Origin: Roseivirga thermotolerans
GTDB taxonomy: Bacteria > Bacteroidota > Bacteroidia > Cytophagales > Cyclobacteriaceae
Length of the DNA stretch: 64,000 nt
Reading direction: 5' to 3'
NCBI RefSeq assembly: GCF_014653175.1
Contig: NZ_BNAG01000002.1
Span: forward strand, 372,001 to 436,000
In this document: positions 10,045 to 15,039 of the stretch, piece after piece
How positions within the stretch are numbered: the stretch's first letter is position 1
Layout: each line of letters opens with the position of its first letter
Program-made: the position numbers and the translations under genes
Notes under the pieces: model-generated
The model's input: only the letters and a program-made list of their open reading frames with translations
Told to the model about the DNA's origin: nothing
Database searches by the model: none

Positions 10045-10067
10045 AAAACCCGGAATTTCCGGGTTTT
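10045..10067. terminator. Bidirectional terminator between TIGR03643 gene and tRNA-Leu
   Basis: AAAACCCGGAA and TTCCGGGTTTT are perfect inverted arms around one base, giving an A-run on one side and a T-run on the other. It can terminate the TIGR03643 transcript from the left and the RtcB/tRNA-Leu transcript from the right. Confidence 0.85.
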
Positions 10068-10070
10068 AAG

Positions 10071-10152
10071 TGCGCACGAGAGGAGTCGAACCTCCATGCC
10101 CGAAGGCACTGCCGCCTGAAGACAGCGCGTCTACCAATTTCGCCACGTGCGC
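10071..10152 (-). tRNA. tRNA-Leu (anticodon CAG)
   Basis: A class II cloverleaf on the minus strand: acceptor GCGCACG/CGTGCGC, D-arm GGCGAAATTGGTAGACGC, anticodon stem CTGTC/GGCAG with loop TTCAGGC (anticodon CAG), a long variable arm, T-arm with GGTTCGACTCC and discriminator A. It lies 59 bases after the RtcB stop codon in the same direction and just before a terminator, so it is plausibly the last element of the RtcB transcript. Confidence 0.96.
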
Positions 10153-10211
10153 AAGGGAGGGCAAAGATAACTGAAAAATGATTCAATAATCAATGCCCAA
10201 ATCATAAGATG

Positions 10212-11633
10212 TTAATCTACTTCCCCAAACCTTTCATCGCCACACATTCTAACCACCTTGGGTTCGAAAGTGCCTAGTACATCAATCAGGTCGGTTTGCT
10301 TGGCCATTACTTCATGAATGTTCTTATACACCTGAGGGGCTTCGTCCAAACCGGAACCGATCAAAGTCACTCCGGCCTTTTTGATGTGCTTCTTCACTTC
10401 CTTTTTAGAGAGTGTCTGCTTGGCTTTGGTTCTGGAAAGTACCCTTCCTGCTCCATGAGAAGCCGAATTGATGGAATCCACATTCCCCTTGCCTTTTACA
10501 ATAAAGCCTGGTGAAGTCATTGAGCCAGGAATTATTCCCAACACCCCTTCGCCTGCAGGGGTAGCACCTTTTCTATGCACAATGATCTCGTTTCCATCTG
10601 CATCTCGCTCTTTCCAGGCAAAGTTGTGGTGGTTTTCGATTAGTGCCAATGGTTGCTCACCCAGGGCCGCAGCGAGCCTATCGTGGATTTGGTGGTGGCA
10701 TGCCGAGGCATAGTCACCTGCCAAATTCATGGCTTGCCAGTATTCCTGACCCGCTTCAGTGTCTAAATCCAACCAGGCCAGATGTTTGGCTTCTCCCGGT
10801 AACTTGGTCATATCCATGGCCAGCTTGGTGTAATGTCTCGCGATATTCGCACCAAGTCCCCTCGATCCCGAATGGGAGAGTACCGACAGATACTTGCCAA
10901 CCGGCAGGTTGAATTCATTGATCTCCGAGTGGATTTCAGTAATACCGAACTCCACAAAGTGGTTGCCACCTCCGGAAGATCCAATTTGCTTCCAGGCCGT
11001 GTCTTTCAACGATTTCAAGATGTTGATTTCATTGAACAGTCCTCTATCTAACACCTCATGGTCTTTTGGCCTTTTAAATACCGCCTGACCGAATTTGGTG
11101 TTCTCCATTAGCATGTCTTTCAACTCATCAGTGTTCTGATGGACAAAAGCAAGAGGGATGTCATACATGGTCATGCACATTCTGCAGCCAATGTCTACTC
11201 CAACTCCATAAGGGATCACTGCATTTTCAGTAGCCAATACACCGCCAATTGGCAGTCCGTAGCCCTGGTGTGCATCGGGCATCAGTGCACCGTATTTAGT
11301 CACCGGCAATTTCATGGCAATCTCCATTTGGTTGATTGCTCCTTGCTCAATGCCGTCTGCCCCATATATATGATATGGTATGCGCTTTTCCCTCAAAGCC
11401 AGTGTTTCATTGTGCTCAGTTTTGATGATCAGGGCCATCGCTACCGGACCCCAAGCCTCGTGTTTTAAATAAAGACCTGGGTTTTCGACCACCTTTTTCA
11501 ACATGGCTTTTTTATGCAGTATGGATTTGCCCTTGTAATGCTCATCCATGGCCTTGATGGCTTCGCCAATGGCTCTACCTTCAGGGAATCCGAGCTTTCT
11601 CAGGTCTTTTCCGCTTAATTTTCTCGTTGCCAT
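10212..11633 (-). CDS. rtcB: RtcB family RNA ligase
   Basis: RNA ligase that joins 2',3'-cyclic phosphate or 3'-phosphate ends to 5'-hydroxyl ends using GTP and manganese. The active-site signatures are all present: DAHQGYGLPIGGV, then GVDIGCRM (metal-binding cysteine), SSGGGNHFVEFG, SHSGSRG, HHNFAW, and NSASHGAGRVLSR, whose histidine takes the GMP. At about 473 residues it is longer than E. coli RtcB (408) because of an N-terminal extension of about 65 residues. MATRKL at 11633 is preferred; an ATG at 11642 is also possible. The start lies inside the end of the TPR gene, so the two are translationally coupled. No RtcA or RtcR is in the window. Confidence 0.95.
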   Translation of the reverse strand: MATRKLSGKDLRKLGFPEGRAIGEAIKAMDEHYKGKSILHKKAMLKKVVENPGLYLKHEAWGPVAMALIIKTEHNETLALREKRIPYHIYGADGIEQGAINQMEIAMKLPVTKYGALMPDAHQGYGLPIGGVLATENAVIPYGVGVDIGCRMCMTMYDIPLAFVHQNTDELKDMLMENTKFGQAVFKRPKDHEVLDRGLFNEINILKSLKDTAWKQIGSSGGGNHFVEFGITEIHSEINEFNLPVGKYLSVLSHSGSRGLGANIARHYTKLAMDMTKLPGEAKHLAWLDLDTEAGQEYWQAMNLAGDYASACHHQIHDRLAAALGEQPLALIENHHNFAWKERDADGNEIIVHRKGATPAGEGVLGIIPGSMTSPGFIVKGKGNVDSINSASHGAGRVLSRTKAKQTLSKKEVKKHIKKAGVTLIGSGLDEAPQVYKNIHEVMAKQTDLIDVLGTFEPKVVRMCGDERFGEVD

Positions 11634-12139
11634 AATTTCCAACGTTTCTTCAATCGTTTATACTTATTTCGCTTGATGTGGTCTTTCAAGTCGTCCACAT
11701 CGTAGTTGTCAAGGGCTTGCATCATGCCTTTTCGGTATAAGGCAATAGCCTTCTTAAACTGACCCTGAGCCTCTGCTGCCTTGCCTAGGTTTTCATAAGC
11801 AAAGGTTTTATTAAAGCCTTCCACCTTGATGGCCTTTAGCATAAGGTTTTCCAGACCCGGGTACTTCTCATTATCCAGATAGAGCTGTGCCAGGTTGTCG
11901 TATGCATTTCTGTAATCTGGCTTAAATTTTATTGCCAGCAAATAATGCTGTTCAGCTCCCGCTTTATCATCAAGGCCGTATTGAAGTAGGCAAGCCATTC
12001 TAAAATGAAGTTTGGCACTACCAGGTTCTTCACACAATCCTCTCTCAAACCATCTTTTGGCCTCATCATCTTGGCCATTATCTATAGCTTGATCTGCCAT
12101 CTGAATAATACTTTCTATGTATTCTTCGTAAATGTCCAT
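11615..12139 (-). CDS. TPR-repeat protein of the RtcB operon
   Basis: A 174-residue soluble protein made of about four tetratricopeptide-type helical hairpins (for example DEAKRWFERGLCEEPGSAKLHF, residues about 25-46, and YRNAYDNLAQLYLDNEKY), ending in a basic tail with RNKYKRLKKRWKLWQ. TPRs bind proteins; the lysine/arginine-rich tail could touch RNA. It overlaps the start of rtcB by about 19 bases. The frame stays open up to 12187, but that part lies in a palindromic repeat, so MDIYEEYIESI at 12139 is the likely start. A scaffold linking the SPFH protein to RtcB is a context inference only. Confidence 0.75.
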   Translation of the reverse strand: MDIYEEYIESIIQMADQAIDNGQDDEAKRWFERGLCEEPGSAKLHFRMACLLQYGLDDKAGAEQHYLLAIKFKPDYRNAYDNLAQLYLDNEKYPGLENLMLKAIKVEGFNKTFAYENLGKAAEAQGQFKKAIALYRKGMMQALDNYDVDDLKDHIKRNKYKRLKKRWKLWQREN

Positions 12140-12181
12140 TTTCGTTTGGGAGGAATACCCGAGCTTTTGGCTTTTGAACCT

Positions 12182-12245
12182 CGTCATTCTGAACTTGTTT
12201 CAGAATCTGCTTGGATTGACAGACCCTGAAATAAATTCAGGGTGA
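12182..12245. repeat. REP-like palindromic repeat pair, first unit
   Basis: ATTCTGAA-CTTG-TTTCAGAAT and CCCTGAA-ATAAA-TTCAGGG form two adjacent imperfect palindromes that begin with GTCATTCTGAA. Sequences of this type are scattered between genes in many Bacteroidota genomes. It lies upstream of the TPR gene, in the space between slipin and TPR. Confidence 0.7.
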
Positions 12246-12324
12246 TTGTTCAAGAGGTACATGGCGAGAGCATTCCTCGTTTTTATGTAACTGTTTCATG
12301 TTCTTAAGATGCCCTTTTTGGTAC

Positions 12325-12385
12325 GTCATCCCCGCGTATGCGGGGATCTCAATGTTCTAGAGATTCCCGTTTTCACGGGAATGAC
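12325..12385. repeat. REP-like palindromic repeat pair, second unit
   Basis: GTCATCCCCG-CGTATG-CGGGGAT and ATTCCCG-TTTTCA-CGGGAATGAC form two hairpins in mirror orientation around a 12-base spacer, the arrangement of a BIME-like repeat. It is 32 bases from the slipin stop codon and could stabilise or partly terminate the slipin mRNA before the TPR and rtcB genes. Confidence 0.75.
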
Positions 12386-12416
12386 ATACTAATTAGGTTC
12401 GTCTAAAGTTGACCAA

Positions 12417-13511
12417 CTACCTGGAGAAAATCTCCTTCAATTGATCTACCACCTGGTTACCACCAGACAGAGAGATGTTGTTGATCTTATCTGCAATTCT
12501 TTCAATGTATTCCATCTCTTTCAACTTGAACAACATTTCGTTGTTTTCCATCAATTTGGCAGTGTTCAGCAAGCTTCTTGTGGAAGCTGTTTCTTCTCTT
12601 CTGGTAATCACGTTGGCCTGCGCTTGTTTCTGAGCCACCAATACCTGGTTCATGATGTTTCTCAATTCACCGGAAAGAATGATATCCTTGACACCACTAT
12701 CCCTGATTTCAATTCCCAGTGTATCGGCTTTGCTCTTCAGAACCTCTTTCACATAGTCTGCAATGGCAGATTTTTGTTCCAGCAATTCATCAAGCGTGTA
12801 GTTGCCAATGTATTCTCTCAATGCCAGCTGCATCAGCACATATAGCTGCTTATCAGCGTCTTTGTTGTCGATCAGGTATTTCACCAAATCGACTACTTTG
12901 TACTGGCAGTTGAAGTTAATTCTCAGGCCGGCTTTGTCTTTGGTCAAGATTTCCTGACCTGAAACTTCCATTTGAAGGTGTCTCATATCGGCCTTCAAAA
13001 CGCTCAATGCGGTGGTGTTTTTCCAGAAGTAGTAAGTGCCTTTATCAAGCGCTTTTTTCAACTTTCCATCTATCATTAAGAGTCCTCTTTCGTAAGATTC
13101 AACTACGTAAACTCTGATGTATCTTAGCAAATCGGTGCTGGTAAGCACAGCTTTGCTAATGTCTTGAGTGATGTTGAAATCGCTTAGGTCTACTCTGGTG
13201 AAAGTGTATTCCACCAAACCTTTCCAGAAAGCATATTTTCCTACCGTCAAAACTTGTTTGAACTTGCCGTCAGCATATTGAATGACAATCTCATTGTCTT
13301 TCACGTCTACCACTTCAAGCATTGCAGCCAAGGCTTCATCCTTCAAAAGGATGTTTAAGTTTTTAGAAGAGTAGAACTGATCGGTAAGGTTGTAAACCAT
13401 TACAGTGTCCGCTAGCGATAACCAAGTAGTACCTGCAGTGATCACTTTGCGGTAATCTCCATTTCTGAAAACCAAACCGACTTTTCCATCGTTGATTCGT
13501 ATTCTTTTCAT
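12417..13511 (-). CDS. SPFH/band-7 (slipin-type) protein of the RtcB operon
   Basis: A 364-residue protein with an SPFH/band-7 domain over about residues 130-290 (DMRHLQMEVSGQEILTKDKA, then LALREYIGNYTLDELLEQK and LGIEIRDSGVKDI) and a coiled-coil-prone tail with KQAQANVITRREETASTR. Unlike ordinary slipins it has no N-terminal membrane helix. The first 180 residues hold three copies of a 45-50 residue unit (about 2-45, 65-112, 132-178), each with the pattern dG, about eight residues, G.Y.FW. SPFH proteins assemble into large rings or scaffolds. Next to rtcB it may hold the repair machinery or sense damage; this is inference. It follows the tRNA-like region, 330-400 bases downstream. Confidence 0.85.
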   Translation of the reverse strand: MKRIRINDGKVGLVFRNGDYRKVITAGTTWLSLADTVMVYNLTDQFYSSKNLNILLKDEALAAMLEVVDVKDNEIVIQYADGKFKQVLTVGKYAFWKGLVEYTFTRVDLSDFNITQDISKAVLTSTDLLRYIRVYVVESYERGLLMIDGKLKKALDKGTYYFWKNTTALSVLKADMRHLQMEVSGQEILTKDKAGLRINFNCQYKVVDLVKYLIDNKDADKQLYVLMQLALREYIGNYTLDELLEQKSAIADYVKEVLKSKADTLGIEIRDSGVKDIILSGELRNIMNQVLVAQKQAQANVITRREETASTRSLLNTAKLMENNEMLFKLKEMEYIERIADKINNISLSGGNQVVDQLKEIFSR

Positions 13512-13852
13512 TTTTACAATGGTTGTGAGGTTTCCCTCGGTTAAACATTTATTTATCGCTATTGGCCAAATAGTTTCGTTTTATGAAAGGTTGAACAGTT
13601 TGCCATCTATCCAAAGCGAGGTGTTTATTGAGTCTGAATTCAGAAGTGAGTTCTAGAGTCAGGGGAATTTGCTTGGAACTGAAGTTCGCAACGTCTTCCT
13701 GTGACAGCAGAAGTCAAATCTTGCATCGGGCGATATCCTAATCCACCTTGGCTTTTTCAAAACTTTCCTCATCTACCGAAGTAGGTAAGGGGCAAACTGA
13801 ATCTTCCTTTCAGTATTGGCATCGGTTTTTAAAGAAGACCCGATGAACTTCT
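13512..13852 (-). other. Structured leader between tRNA-like array and slipin
   Basis: No ORF of interest. On the minus strand it contains several stems: CATCGG/CCGATG and ACTGAA/TTCAGT near 13803-13842, and a 10-bp stem with one mismatch closed by a UUCG tetraloop (CTAC-TTCG-GTAG, around 13768-13792). GAAC-TTCA-GTTC lies near 13672-13683. This much foldable sequence continuing from the tRNA-like elements suggests that the slipin mRNA has a long structured 5' region. Confidence 0.5.
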
Positions 13853-13900
13853 GATCGATAGAAACCAAATCTATTGCGTCTGCCAATTTCGCCATTCCAG
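13853..13900 (-). ncRNA. tRNA-like element: Leu-type D-arm with UGG anticodon loop, no T-arm
   Basis: GGCGAAATTGGCAGACGC is nearly identical to the D-arm of the real tRNA-Leu at 10071-10152. It is followed by a perfect 5-bp anticodon stem ATAGA/TCTAT (13858-13874) with loop TTTGGTT, which reads UGG, a proline anticodon. No TTCGAAT-type T-arm or acceptor 3' strand follows; a CATCGG/CCGATG hairpin occupies that place. It is a tRNA 5' half or a chimeric decoy-like structure, not a working tRNA. Confidence 0.6.
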
Positions 13901-13907
13901 TCACTTG

Positions 13908-13970
13908 ACTAGAAGTGGGACTCGAACCCACACGATTGGTCTTGCTGTTCTAACCACTGAACTATCCCTT
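13908..13970 (-). ncRNA. tRNA-like element with shortened anticodon region
   Basis: It has a perfect D-arm (TAGTTCAGTGGTTAGAAC) and a perfect T-arm (GTGGG-TTCGAGT-CCCAC, 13915-13931). Only about 15 bases separate them, against 22-23 in a normal tRNA, so the anticodon arm and variable loop are collapsed. The acceptor strands (GAAGGGA and TTCTAGT) do not pair. The 5' side runs into the palindrome CCCGATAGCTATCGGG. It is best described as a degenerate tRNA-like sequence. Confidence 0.6.
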
Positions 13971-13986
13971 CCCGATAGCTATCGGG
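13971..13986. repeat. 16-bp perfect palindrome CCCGATAGCTATCGGG
   Basis: A self-complementary 16-mer lying between two tRNA-like elements and contributing the 3' acceptor strand of the element to its right. It resembles short palindromic repeats found in Bacteroidota intergenic DNA, so the array may have been shaped by repeat insertion. Confidence 0.65.
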
Positions 13987-14117
13987 AGAGAGGAGGAGTC
14001 GAACCTCCGACTACAAGCGTGGGAAACATCAAGCTAAGTAGGATACCGTGGCCTACCGGCTCGGTACTATGGGGTTATACAGAAACCCTCATCAGGTCTT
14101 CTACCTGATTTATCCCG
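13982..14117 (-). ncRNA. tRNA-like element with inserted segment, abutting the Tyr-like tRNA
   Basis: A 136-base element. Acceptor strands CGGGATA (14117-14111) and TCTCCCG (13989-13983) pair with one mismatch, discriminator A. A 7-bp hairpin ATCAGGT/ACCTGAT replaces the D-arm, and an anticodon-like arm GGGTT-TCTGTAT-AACCC follows. About 45 extra bases come next, including TACCG/CGGTA, and then a perfect T-arm GGAGG-TTCGACT-CCTCC. Its first base follows the discriminator of the Tyr-like tRNA with no spacer. It cannot be an ordinary tRNA but keeps both ends and the T-arm. Confidence 0.55.
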
Positions 14118-14200
14118 TGGAAATGGTAGGATTCGAACCTACTCAGCCTGAGGCACTGGTTTTACAGACCAGCATAACTCTCCCTCGTTATCGCATTTCC
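14118..14200 (-). tRNA. tRNA-Tyr-like (anticodon GTA), possibly degenerate
   Basis: Acceptor GGAAATG/CATTTCC is perfect with discriminator A. The anticodon arm CTGGT-CTGTAAA-ACCAG gives GTA (Tyr), the variable arm is extended (GCC-TCA-GGC) as in class II tRNA-Tyr, and the T-arm GTAGG-TTCGAAT-CCTAC is perfect. The D side is unusual: CG instead of UA at positions 8-9 and an A/T-rich stem ATAAC/GTTAT. It may be a working tRNA-Tyr or a diverged copy. It ends exactly where the next tRNA-like element begins. Confidence 0.75.
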
Positions 14201-14322
14201 ATTGAGGTCATTGTTCCTTCCAATTGGCACTCAACCAATATTCCGGTTCAACGACCTGCTATTTGCATTGGAGCTTTTTCAAACATCACAGTCCGAACGA
14301 AAGACTGCTTGAGGGCTTTAAC

Positions 14323-14341
14323 CCTGCCTGCGGCAGGCAGG
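14323..14341. repeat. 19-base palindrome CCTGCCTGCGGCAGGCAGG
   Basis: A perfect inverted repeat around one central base, within the DNA that separates a broken tRNA half from the Tyr-like tRNA. Confidence 0.65.
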
Positions 14342-14394
14342 CTCTCTCCAAGTTGAGGAGACGCTCGTTCTGCCTCTCCTTTAGCTTCTTGACC

Positions 14395-14445
14395 CCTTTG
14401 TCCTGCGGACATTTCCCCTTGGTAAGGGGAAAGAGGAAGGGGCGT
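14395..14445. repeat. Inserted palindromic repeat inside a broken tRNA
   Basis: The segment contains TTTCCCCTT-GGT-AAGGGGAAA and GTCC-TGC-GGAC between CCCCTT and AAGGGG, a compound palindrome of the kind dispersed in Bacteroidota genomes. It begins just where the tRNA half at 14446-14490 loses similarity to a cloverleaf. Confidence 0.65.
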
Positions 14446-14490
14446 CTTCATCATCAGTGATCTATTACTGCCACTGAACTACGGTATCAT
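14446..14490 (-). pseudogene. tRNA 5' half, interrupted by a repeat
   Basis: On the minus strand GATACCGTAGTTCAGTGG and CAGTAATAGATCACTGATGA give an acceptor 5' strand, a D-arm and the beginning of an anticodon arm (loop like CTGATGA). The sequence then passes into the palindromic repeat at 14395-14445, and no matching 3' half follows directly. The strand GATACCG is complementary to CGGTATC inside the element at 13982-14117, which could be chance or a trace of rearrangement. Confidence 0.55.
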
Positions 14491-14493
14491 TTG

Positions 14494-14567
14494 TCGGCCC
14501 ACGGGGACTTGAACCCCGAACCACCAGCTTATAAGACTGGCACTCTGACCTGTTGAGCTATGGGCCG
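14494..14567 (-). tRNA. tRNA-Ile (anticodon TAT)
   Basis: A complete cloverleaf: acceptor CGGCCCA/TGGGCCG with discriminator A, D-arm GCTC/GAGT, anticodon stem CCAGT/GCTGG with loop CTTATAA, and T-arm CGGGG-TTCAAGT-CCCCG. The anticodon is UAU, which would read the isoleucine codon AUA directly. Most bacteria instead read AUA with a CAU tRNA modified by TilS. It is in tandem with tRNA-Cys, 5 bases apart. Confidence 0.88.
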
Positions 14568-14572
14568 TTTTG

Positions 14573-14643
14573 AGTCGGGAACCGGATTCGAACCGGTGAT
14601 GTCAGTTTTGCAGACTGAAGCCTTGCCACTTGGCTATCCCGAC
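14573..14643 (-). tRNA. tRNA-Cys (anticodon GCA)
   Basis: A complete cloverleaf: acceptor GTCGGGA/TCCCGAC, discriminator U (a cysteine identity element), D-arm GCC/GGC, anticodon stem TCAGT/ACTGA with loop CTGCAAA, and T-arm ACCGG-TTCGAAT-CCGGT. It begins two bases after the U-tract of a terminator, so it is either read through from upstream or processed from a longer transcript. It is the first tRNA of the array that leads to slipin-TPR-rtcB. Confidence 0.97.
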
Positions 14644-14644
14644 A

Positions 14645-14680
14645 ATAAAAAAAGCCCGGCCTTATGCAGACCGGGCTTTT
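14645..14680 (-). terminator. Terminator directly ahead of tRNA-Cys
   Basis: On the minus strand AAAAGCCCGG and CCGGGCTTTT form a 10-bp perfect stem with an 11-base loop, followed by a run of T. It ends two bases before tRNA-Cys. Transcription from the promoter at 15008-15039 must pass it to reach the tRNA array, so it could act as an attenuator. Confidence 0.8.
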
Positions 14681-14702
14681 CAATGCCGTGTATACGGAAT
14701 TG

Positions 14703-14840
14703 TCAAGTCATATTCTTCCCGATCTTATTTTGCAAAAGACATATTTCACCCAGGCCAAAATCACTGTGATTTGGATAGGCTGCCGGTGATAGCCATGTAA
14801 CCTCTAAGCGTATACTGTTCTTTTGCATTTTCAAATTCAT
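14703..14840 (-). CDS. Short ORF between two terminators (45 codons), doubtful
   Basis: The ATG at 14840 opens a 45-residue frame beginning MNLKMQKNSIRLEVTWLSP and ending GKNMT. No domain or signal is recognisable. It lies between the terminators at 14846-14876 and 14645-14680 on the strand of the tRNA array. It could be a leader peptide or an accidental frame in a structured RNA; the DNA also forms a hairpin CCAAATCA/TGATTTTGG. Confidence 0.25.
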   Translation of the reverse strand: MNLKMQKNSIRLEVTWLSPAAYPNHSDFGLGEICLLQNKIGKNMT

Positions 14841-14845
14841 TTAAA

Positions 14846-14876
14846 ACAAAAAACCCGAACCAATTGGCCCGGGTTT
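14846..14876 (-). terminator. First terminator in the leader of the tRNA array
   Basis: On the minus strand AAACCCG and CGGGTTT form a 7-bp stem around GGCCAATTGGTT, followed by TTT and further T residues. It lies 23 bases after the stop codon of the 31-codon ORF, the classical place for an attenuator. Confidence 0.8.
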
Positions 14877-14898
14877 CTAAGTGTCTTTATACTTAAGC

Positions 14899-14994
14899 TT
14901 AACTTATATTCCGGAACCGTAGCACATCACAATCATTGTAACCCAATGTTTCCATTGATTGTATACTGCTGATATGTGATAATAGTGCTTTCAT
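14899..14994 (-). CDS. Short leader ORF (31 codons) under a strong promoter
   Basis: An ATG at 14994 lies only 13 bases beyond an excellent promoter (-7 box TACCTTTG) and opens a 31-residue frame starting MKALLSHISSIQSMETLGYN and ending RFRNIS, with one cysteine codon. A terminator hairpin follows 23 bases after the stop. This order of promoter, short ORF and terminator is that of a leader-peptide attenuator or of a short independent transcript. The peptide has no recognisable family. Confidence 0.5.
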   Translation of the reverse strand: MKALLSHISSIQSMETLGYNDCDVLRFRNIS

Positions 14995-15007
14995 TTCTTA
15001 TGTGGCA

Positions 15008-15039
15008 CAAAGGTAGAAAAAGAGATTTTAAATTTGCAA
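15008..15039 (-). promoter_or_regulatory. Strong Bacteroidota-type promoter for the leader ORF and tRNA array
   Basis: On the minus strand TTG (15039-15037), 21 bases, and TACCTTTG (15015-15008) match the TTG-N19-21-TAnnTTTG consensus perfectly. This is the best promoter seen in the window and points into the locus with tRNAs, slipin, TPR and rtcB. Confidence 0.8.

What the first reader, a model, noticed from the sequence alone, without database searches (positions are those of the whole stretch)
10045..15039. RNA ligase locus (slipin-TPR-RtcB) led by an array of intact and degenerate tRNAs and closed by tRNA-Leu
Seen: within 5 kb on one strand there is a strong promoter, two short ORFs, two terminators, tRNA-Cys, tRNA-Ile(UAU), a broken tRNA half, a Tyr-like tRNA, three further tRNA-like elements, a structured leader, then SPFH protein, TPR protein, RtcB and tRNA-Leu with terminator. 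The TPR and rtcB genes overlap. Known: RtcB seals cyclic-phosphate/5'-OH breaks such as those made by anticodon nucleases, and Salmonella RtcB is encoded with tRNA-like Y RNAs (YrlA/B). Inference: the tRNA-like RNAs may be substrates, decoys or sensors of tRNA damage for an RtcB-SPFH complex. A decayed tRNA cluster that happens to sit upstream is the null hypothesis.
Basis: partly seen in the sequence, partly recalled or inferred. Interest (0 to 1): 0.87.

Follow-up and report, generated by a model that had tools for sequence, protein, structure and literature searches.

The report
Stall-triggered tRNA backup and repair operon
Many Bacteroidota carry a locus that is built to switch on when ribosomes stall and then make spare transfer RNAs, an RNA that imitates transfer RNA, and often an RNA-repair enzyme, which looks like a built-in answer to enzymes that cut transfer RNAs.

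Summary
The locus (minus strand, about 15015 to 10212) is a conserved module, not a decayed tRNA cluster. Order: promoter; two leader-peptide attenuators; array of divergent tRNAs; a structured RNA of ~380 nt; SPFH protein ("slipin"); TPR; RtcB. The "broken" tRNA-like pieces beside slipin are one RNA: a circularly permuted tRNA mimic (YrlA-type, like bacterial Y RNA) fused to a second permuted unit with an anticodon loop. 88 of 90 slipin loci match the mimic model, with strong covariation. In 80 loci 274 same-strand tRNAs lie within 6 kb upstream of slipin, 5 downstream. They differ from housekeeping tRNAs at position 37 in 118 of 265 cases; control 1 of 102. In 33 of 34 chosen loci, two terminators each follow a short ORF; the putative antiterminator is significant in 27 (A) and 18 (B) of 33, in the window only for B. 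The window genome has no Ro (TROVE) match. Best reading: ribosome stalling relieves attenuation and induces spare tRNAs plus RtcB; the mimic is bait, sensor or scaffold. Induction, charging, resistance and RNA function are untested. The closing tRNA-Leu is not conserved.

The parts
15008..15015 (-). promoter -7 element TACCTTTG (TAnnTTTG type)
   Evidence: the TAnnTTTG consensus for Bacteroidetes is recalled
14899..14994 (-). leader ORF A (31 codons, His codon at position 7)
   Evidence: His7 in 33 of 33 loci compared
14847..14876 (-). intrinsic terminator 1
14703..14840 (-). leader ORF B (45 codons)
14718..14725 (-). putative antiterminator B (AGATCGGG), pairs with the 5' arm of terminator 2
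   Evidence: duplex score 19.5, shuffle p 0.015; nascent fold -21.1 kcal/mol
14647..14680 (-). intrinsic terminator 2
14573..14643 (-). array tRNA-Cys(GCA), 69% identical to another tRNA-Cys of the genome
14494..14567 (-). array tRNA-Ile(UAU)
14455..14490 (-). 5' half of a broken array tRNA (D arm present)
   Evidence: sequence
14118..14200 (-). array tRNA-Tyr(GUA), class II; missed by ARAGORN
   Evidence: 41.1 bits
14072..14109 (-). two 5' hairpins of the structured RNA
   Evidence: not tested statistically
14039..14048 (-). 5' strand of the candidate closing helix (CGGTATCCTA)
   Evidence: seen by eye, not tested statistically
13941..14018 (-). U1, circularly permuted tRNA-like unit: anticodon-stem 3' strand, V loop, T arm, acceptor hairpin, D arm, anticodon-stem 5' strand
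   Evidence: R2 match 13940-14018, 56.0 bits, E 7.4e-13
13858..13931 (-). U2, second permuted unit: T arm, closed acceptor hairpin, D arm, closed anticodon stem-loop ATAGA-TTTGGTT-TCTAT
13820..13852 (-). candidate H-type pseudoknot
13731..13741 (-). 3' strand of the candidate closing helix (TTAGGATATCG)
   Evidence: seen by eye
12417..13511 (-). SPFH protein ('slipin'): three N-terminal beta modules + SPFH domain; no N-terminal helix in the model
11615..12139 (-). TPR protein
10212..11633 (-). RtcB RNA ligase

Best explanation
A stress operon for tRNA damage. Step 1 (predicted from sequence): transcription starts at about 15000 and normally stops at one of two terminators, because a ribosome finishing each leader ORF covers the antiterminator strand. 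Step 2 (inferred): when ribosomes stall in the leaders, for instance because tRNAs have been cut, the antiterminator pairs with the terminator's 5' arm and RNA polymerase reads on. Step 3 (identity elements mostly shown, function inferred): the transcript yields spare tRNAs, many of kinds that known anticodon nucleases attack (recalled), often with altered position 37 that may make them resistant. Step 4 (fold shown, role inferred): the permuted tRNA-mimic RNA (YrlA-type) has no free acceptor end but shows tRNA elbow features and, in U2, a real anticodon loop, so it can bind or bait tRNA-recognising enzymes or serve as scaffold or sensor. Step 5 (established for the family, not tested here): RtcB reseals cyclic-phosphate/5'-OH breaks in the remaining tRNAs. 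Slipin probably forms a ring or cage that organises RNA and ligase in place of the Ro protein (inferred).
For: Conservation: a match to the permuted-tRNA model R2 in the slipin leader of 88 of 90 loci given (38 of the 90 built R2, and one pair, L075 and L106, is the same record). Covariation of U1 on 38 sequences: 90.7% of cells paired against 68.5% shuffled, 206 double-change cells against 63, score 0.670 against 0.228 shuffled and 0.09-0.20 slid. Module behaviour in the genus: 11 of 18 same-genus genomes have slipin, R2 and RtcB; of the other 7, none has R2 (E 1e-8) or the slipin orthologue and 6 lack RtcB. Array: 274 tRNAs upstream in 80 loci, only 10 of them Ala, Gly, Val, Thr or Met, against 10 of 30 housekeeping genes fetched from the window genome; discriminators constant in most kinds (Tyr A 31/31, Cys U 16/16, His C 12/12, Ser G 19/19, Pro A 12/12, Asp G 23/24) and 7/7 acceptor pairs in 242 of 274; 57-79% identity to the same genome's housekeeping isoacceptor in two genomes; N37 not seen in housekeeping for 118 of 265, control 1 of 102. 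Attenuators: tandem terminators with leader ORFs in 33 of 34 chosen loci; terminator 5' arm complementary to a site near the ORF end, mean duplex score 17.5 against 9.7 shuffled (A; p<0.05 in 27 of 33) and 16.2 against 10.3 (B; 18 of 33). Independent parallel: in Anabaena a repressor controls rtcB, a slipin gene and a 26-tRNA array activated by translation inhibitors (PMC10272220, passages).
Against: No expression data. In the window attenuator A is weak (p 0.085). Five of 31 loci examined in 3.2 kb (L073, L084, L087, L094, L096) show no such terminator pair, and the pair scored in L131 lies about 5 kb before its tRNAs. 28 of 80 slipin loci have no ARAGORN tRNA upstream; 28 of 80 have no RtcB on the same strand in the held stretch (some cut by contig ends), and 11 of the 42 downstream RtcB matches are only 28-31% identical. 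Position 37 is unchanged in Tyr, Cys, Asn, Ser and Trp array tRNAs, and Gln array tRNAs have mixed discriminators (A 10, U 11, G 1). Array tRNAs of different species are related, so the counts are not independent events. Leader peptides show more nonsynonymous than synonymous changes. In Salmonella fragments of YrlA were not detected when tRNAs were cut (PMC7790460), which weakens the bait idea for U1, though U1 has no anticodon loop.
Confidence: 0.6

Rival explanations
1. The array tRNAs and mimic RNA are decoys: they absorb anticodon nucleases or modifying enzymes and are not used in translation.
For: U1 and U2 have closed acceptor hairpins, so as drawn they cannot be charged; U2 shows varied real anticodon loops, e.g. 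Lys-, Leu-, Asn- and Phe-like; the authors of the Salmonella study suggested that YrlA's tRNA-like domain might act as a competitive inhibitor (PMC7790460, passages).
Against: Most array tRNAs keep discriminators and full acceptor stems, which decoys would not need; changed position 37 would make poor decoys.
Confidence: 0.15
2. The RNA works like Ro-associated Y RNA: a tether that points an exonuclease such as PNPase at structured or damaged RNA, with slipin in place of Ro.
For: Same permuted fold as YrlA (alignment); R2 matches lie within 3 kb of TROVE in 6 of 9 TROVE-bearing genomes, and 7 of the 30 best class-wide loci lie beside TROVE; Rfam YrlA scores are alike in both settings.
Against: The basal Ro-binding stem is not evident in the window alignment; own genome has no TROVE match; does not explain the tRNA array.
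Confidence: 0.2
3. The array is an imported tRNA cluster of phage or plasmid origin that supplies rare tRNAs.
For: Arrays vary in size and content between species; phages carry such clusters with loop changes (PMC10264068, passages); mycobacterial clusters were linked to phage transfer and GOLLD RNA (PMC9569102, passages).
Against: Arrays sit at one place upstream of slipin on one strand; no slipin orthologue among 50,697 phage records at E 1e-5, only two HflK matches; a Flavobacterial-type sequence pattern of the RNA hit only 2 viral contigs, without a genuine R2 match, slipin or RtcB.
Confidence: 0.08
4. U1 is a permuted pre-tRNA gene that RtcB circularises into a tRNA.
For: Order 3' half then 5' half with an open anticodon stem; some acceptor loops are 17-22 nt and look like two tRNA ends.
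Against: Many acceptor loops are 1-6 nt, leaving little room for 5' and 3' processing; YrlA has the same topology and is not spliced (recalled).
Confidence: 0.04
5. A tRNA cluster in decay that happens to lie upstream.
For: One broken half in the window (14455-14490).
Against: 88 of 90 loci, covariation, strand bias 274 to 3.
Confidence: 0.02

Closest known systems
YrlA-type bacterial Y RNA in rsr-yrlBA-rtcBA RNA-repair operons (Salmonella)
   Same: Permuted tRNA-like domain in a locus with rtcB; Rfam's YrlA model aligns end to end and scores 36-52 bits in eight slipin-linked relatives.
   Different: No TROVE match in the window genome; below Rfam's gathering score of 69; embedded in a larger RNA with a second permuted unit, upstream of an SPFH gene and downstream of a tRNA array.
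Anabaena trn operon and TrcR regulon (PMC10272220)
   Same: tRNA array, rtcB and a slipin gene under one stress control; array activated by translation inhibitors.
   Different: There the genes are scattered and controlled by a repressor protein; here they are one locus with attenuators.
Phage tRNA clusters proposed to evade anticodon nucleases (PMC10264068)
   Same: Spare tRNAs with changed anticodon loops; in coliphages tRNA-Lys is paired with an RNA ligase.
   Different: Chromosomal, linked to RtcB and a Y-like RNA; Tyr, Cys and Asn loops are unchanged at position 37.
Leader-peptide transcription attenuation of amino-acid operons (recalled)
   Same: Leader ORF, antiterminator and terminator arranged in series.
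   Different: Two in tandem; leaders together carry 19.2 of 20 amino acids on average, 18.6 expected, so they would sense stalling in general, not one amino acid.
Stomatin/slipin SPFH proteins; PaFlo8 in the P. aeruginosa rtc locus (PMC13086221, passages)
   Different: Extra N-terminal beta modules and no N-terminal helix in the model; no transmembrane predictor was run.

Membership tests
YrlA / bacterial Y RNA | permuted tRNA-like domain (T arm, acceptor hairpin, D arm, stem closing at the anticodon side) | tested here: met
YrlA / bacterial Y RNA | Rfam RF02553 gathering score 69 bits | tested here: not met
   window 21.8 bits; best of 14 relatives 51.5 bits
YrlA / bacterial Y RNA | association with a Ro (TROVE) protein | tested here: not met
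   no TROVE match in the own genome; 9 of 59 genomes have one
YrlA / bacterial Y RNA | basal stem that binds Ro | tested here: inconclusive
   not evident in the window alignment
Leader-peptide attenuator | short ORF ending just before a terminator, with a mutually exclusive antiterminator | tested here: met
   not significant for leader A of the window (p 0.085), significant for B (0.015)
Leader-peptide attenuator | translation-dependent read-through | not testable with these tools
   needs reporter or RNA-seq
tRNA genes active in translation | cloverleaf, discriminator and acceptor identity kept | tested here: met
   for most kinds; Gln discriminators are mixed
tRNA genes active in translation | aminoacylation and ribosome use | not testable with these tools
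   needs experiment
RtcB ligase family | Pfam RtcB domain over cut-off | tested here: met
   271.3 bits, cut-off 27; NCBIfam RtcB models match below their cut-offs
rtcBA operon with RtcR/RtcA control | rtcA and rtcR in the locus | not tested
   no search for them was made
Slipin/stomatin | SPFH (Band_7) domain | tested here: met
Major vault protein | N-terminal structural repeats of MVP type | tested here: inconclusive

The most novel reading that the evidence does not exclude
A chromosomal immunity and repair device against anticodon nucleases: tandem attenuators read ribosome stalling; the operon then replaces cut tRNAs with loop-altered, nuclease-resistant versions, exposes an unchargeable tRNA mimic whose anticodon loop is bait and damage sensor (and itself an RtcB substrate, giving feedback), and organises RNA and ligase inside a soluble SPFH cage that took over the role of Ro, possibly vault-like.
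Probability: 0.2. Interest if true: 0.95.

Novelty: new variant of a known kind. Interest (0 to 1): 0.85.

Why it matters
It joins four things usually studied apart: Y RNAs, RtcB repair, tRNA arrays with altered anticodon loops, and attenuation. It offers testable answers to two open questions: what Y RNAs and SPFH proteins do beside RNA ligases, and how bacteria survive tRNA cleavage. Large chromosomal tRNA arrays may be a damage response, not a codon-usage aid. Several host species are named cultured strains.
Full report
Observation. Reading from 15039 downward: a TAnnTTTG promoter element (15008-15015), leader ORF A (14899-14994), terminator 1 (14847-14876), leader ORF B (14703-14840), terminator 2 (14647-14680), tRNA-Cys(GCA), tRNA-Ile(UAU), a 5' tRNA half, tRNA-Tyr(GUA) (missed by ARAGORN, 41.1 bits in Rfam), a structured RNA (about 14110-13730), slipin, TPR, RtcB (coordinates). 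tRNA-Leu(CAG) lies beyond rtcB, but none of 18 related loci has a tRNA-Leu downstream; 14 of the 18 show rtcB in the held stretch.

Conservation of the module. Slipin orthologues (377 bits or more) occur in 19 of 59 genomes searched, the own genome included, and in 11 of 18 same-genus genomes. A scan of named genomes gave 80 loci, the best 80 of 545 relatives in a capped list; nearly all titles name Bacteroidota, the exceptions being MAGs named Chlorobiota, Thalassobius and Rickettsiales, whose taxonomy I did not check. In these 80 loci ARAGORN finds 274 tRNAs on the operon strand within 6 kb upstream (421,586 bp), 3 on the other strand, and 5 on both strands in 428,665 bp downstream; 52 of 80 have at least one, 35 at least two, 20 at least five, 14 at least ten. 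In 42 of 80 loci RtcB follows slipin on the same strand within 2.5 kb (11 of these are distant relatives at 28-31% identity); in 10 it lies upstream; in 28 none is in the held stretch on that strand, some cut by contig ends. The TPR gene follows slipin in 9 of 80. In the genus the parts come and go together: 11 of 18 genomes have slipin, the RNA and RtcB; of the other 7, none has the RNA at E 1e-8 or the slipin orthologue, and 6 lack RtcB; the exception G016 is a 540-contig assembly.

The RNA beside slipin. T-arm motifs occur in pairs about 55-95 nt apart, some 300-800 nt before slipin, in most loci. Each T arm is followed by a hairpin made of an acceptor 3' strand and an acceptor 5' strand, and then by a D arm: the order of a tRNA cut open at its anticodon side. 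In U1 the anticodon stem is made of a strand after the D arm and a strand before the T arm; in U2 a closed anticodon stem-loop follows the D arm. Partner shuffling among loci supports these helices: U1 acceptor hairpin 6.12 of 7 pairs against 3.63; U2 acceptor hairpin 6.06 against 3.38; U1 open anticodon stem 4.19 of 5 against 2.96; U2 closed stem 4.19 against 2.88 (each 0 of 2000 shuffles as high). Controls: U1 closed stem 2.22 against 2.12 (289 of 2000 as high) and non-permuted acceptor 3.47 against 3.31 (432 of 2000) are at chance, but a U2 open stem is weakly above it (2.83 against 2.37, 3 of 2000). Of 91 leaders, 59 U1 and 36 U2 units passed the sequence-only D-arm motif; the rest were dropped. 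On an alignment of 38 U1 elements, 90.7% of cells pair against 68.5% shuffled, with 206 double-change cells against 63 and a covariation score of 0.670 against 0.228 (0.09-0.20 when slid); all five anticodon-stem pairs change on both sides. The sequences are related, so these are not counts of independent events. Model R2 finds U1 in the window at 56.0 bits and in the leader of 88 of 90 loci given, all but L089 and L092 (38 of the 90 built the model; L075 and L106 are the same record).

Kinship of the RNA. Rfam's YrlA model aligns 1-114 of 114 to the window element, at 21.8 bits, below its gathering score of 69. In 14 loci picked from the class scan the best YrlA match per locus is 36-52 bits in slipin-linked and 33-46 bits in Ro-linked cases, none over the gathering score. 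Of the 30 best loci of a scan of 295 class genomes, 12 lie beside slipin (L259 by a weak 31% match) and 7 beside TROVE (one, L264, has both); 10 are tandem ordinary tRNAs, which the model also matches; one has only a weak RtcB relative and one has none of these. In 6 of 9 TROVE-bearing relatives an R2 match lies within 3 kb of TROVE. So the element is of Y RNA kind, and slipin loci are mostly a Ro-less setting of it. Flanking hairpins and a pseudoknot are seen; the pseudoknot exceeds the shuffled 95th percentile in 38 of 78 loci. No Rfam family covers the whole RNA in the window.

The array tRNAs. Of 274, only 10 are Ala, Gly, Val, Thr or Met; Tyr (34), Leu (27), Asp (24), Gln (22), Arg (22), Phe (20), Ser (19), Lys (17), Cys (16) and Glu (16) dominate. 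For comparison, 10 of 30 housekeeping genes fetched from the window genome are of those five kinds. Discriminators are constant in most kinds (Tyr, Cys, His, Ser, Pro, Trp all alike; Asp 23/24, Phe 19/20, Asn 9/10), mixed in Gln (A 10, U 11, G 1) and slightly so in Glu, Lys and Arg; 242 of 274 have seven acceptor pairs. In Zobellia and Kordia they are 57-79% identical to the same genome's housekeeping isoacceptor (one of 26 had no counterpart). At position 37 the array base is not seen in housekeeping tRNAs of three genomes in 118 of 265 comparable cases: Asp 24/24, Glu 15/16, Gln 18/22, Leu-UAG 14/16, Pro 12/12, His 11/12, Phe 15/20, Leu-UAA 6/11, Lys 2/16, Arg-UCG 1/3, against 1 of 102 between the housekeeping sets; Tyr, Cys, Asn, Ser and Trp are unchanged. 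This resembles phage tRNAs, for which loop changes were read as evasion of anticodon nucleases (PMC10264068, passages).

The tandem attenuators. The final script was given 34 loci, chosen from those held mostly because they have arrays; it accepted terminator pairs 165-215 or 375-480 nt apart and found pairs with leader ORFs in 33 (not L144, whose terminators are about 540 nt apart); observed spacings are 172-211 nt (Cytophagales) and 379-477 nt (Flavobacteria). In L131 the pair scored lies about 5 kb before its tRNAs. An earlier look at 31 loci within 3.2 kb found no such pair in L073, L084, L087, L094 and L096. Each terminator follows a short ORF whose stop lies 19-45 nt before it. Terminator 5' arms are complementary to a site near the ORF end, mostly at -36 to -42 in Cytophagales leader A and -62 to -68 in Flavobacterial leader A, in changing sequence (CCCGAGCC/GGTTCGGG, AGCGTCC/GGACGTT, CCGAAGC/GCTTCGG, CCCGATCT/AGATCGGG). 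Mean duplex score is 17.5 against 9.7 shuffled for A (p<0.05 in 27 of 33) and 16.2 against 10.3 for B (18 of 33); in the window A is not significant (p 0.085, best site elsewhere) and B is (0.015). Folding shows the two mutually exclusive states (window B: terminator -36.1, antiterminator of the nascent RNA -21.1 kcal/mol). Leader A has His at codon 7 in 33 of 33 loci, against 3.2% of 10,965 random short ORFs. The two leaders together carry 19.2 of 20 amino acids (expected 18.6), and peptide sequences drift, which fits a general stall sensor. Leaders are poor in Ala, Val, Gly and Thr, as are the arrays, but random short ORFs are partly so too (AGVTM 17.3% against 22.3%, and 28.2% in long open frames of the window).

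Function. The best reading is a translation-stress operon that adds spare, partly loop-altered tRNAs, a tRNA-mimic RNA, an SPFH scaffold and RtcB. The closest functional parallel is Anabaena, where one repressor controls rtcB, a slipin gene and a 26-tRNA array activated by translation inhibitors (PMC10272220, passages). In Salmonella the rsr-yrlBA-rtcBA operon is induced by tRNA fragments (PMC7790460, passages).

Literature limits. Searches for RtcB with slipin, SPFH, tRNA array, tRNA fragments, band 7, stomatin, Y RNA and Ro60 listed no paper whose title, abstract or opened passages describe this locus; I did not read the listed papers in full. Burroughs and Aravind 2016 and the 2021 Anabaena array paper are not held, and Chen 2014 and Sim 2020 on Y RNAs were seen only as references, so earlier description of parts of it cannot be excluded. 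The retron tRNA-Tyr paper (PMC11555353) was seen only in a search listing.

Noticed in passing
L123 11875-11958 and L136 11848-11932 (Kordia): Another permuted-tRNA model match (61 and 57 bits) about 3.8 kb downstream of the slipin start, near a tRNA-Gly; could be a second Y-like RNA or tandem tRNAs.
   Followed up: no
G060:C1:3064708-3065042 (L248): A second small cluster of tRNAs (Met, Val-GAC, Gly-ACC, Asp) about 3.5 kb upstream of the Kordia array, so arrays can extend beyond the fetched flanks.
   Followed up: partly
window 12306-12406: Imperfect inverted repeat (GTCATCCCCGCGTATGCGGGGATC...) between slipin and TPR, REP-like; weak sub-threshold Rfam match FtrB only.
   Followed up: no
G008:C48 and G010:C48: Two same-genus genomes carry, besides the slipin locus, a separate TROVE - Y-like RNA - RtcB locus.
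   Followed up: partly
L264 (G101:C51): A locus with TROVE, tRNA-Lys, Y-like RNA and slipin side by side, a possible intermediate between Ro and slipin types.
   Followed up: partly
L108, L112, L115 about 5.6-7.8 kb upstream of slipin: A second tandem terminator pair with leader ORFs upstream of the one before the array, in loci that also have RtcB upstream.
   Followed up: no
L073 381-1038: Second tRNA cluster (Lys, Tyr, Asn, Ile, Met, Phe) on the opposite strand near the slipin-RtcB locus.
   Followed up: no
G028 (31 model matches): Many matches 85-115 nt long, probably runs of tandem near-identical tRNA genes: an unusually large tRNA gene number in this genome.
   Followed up: no
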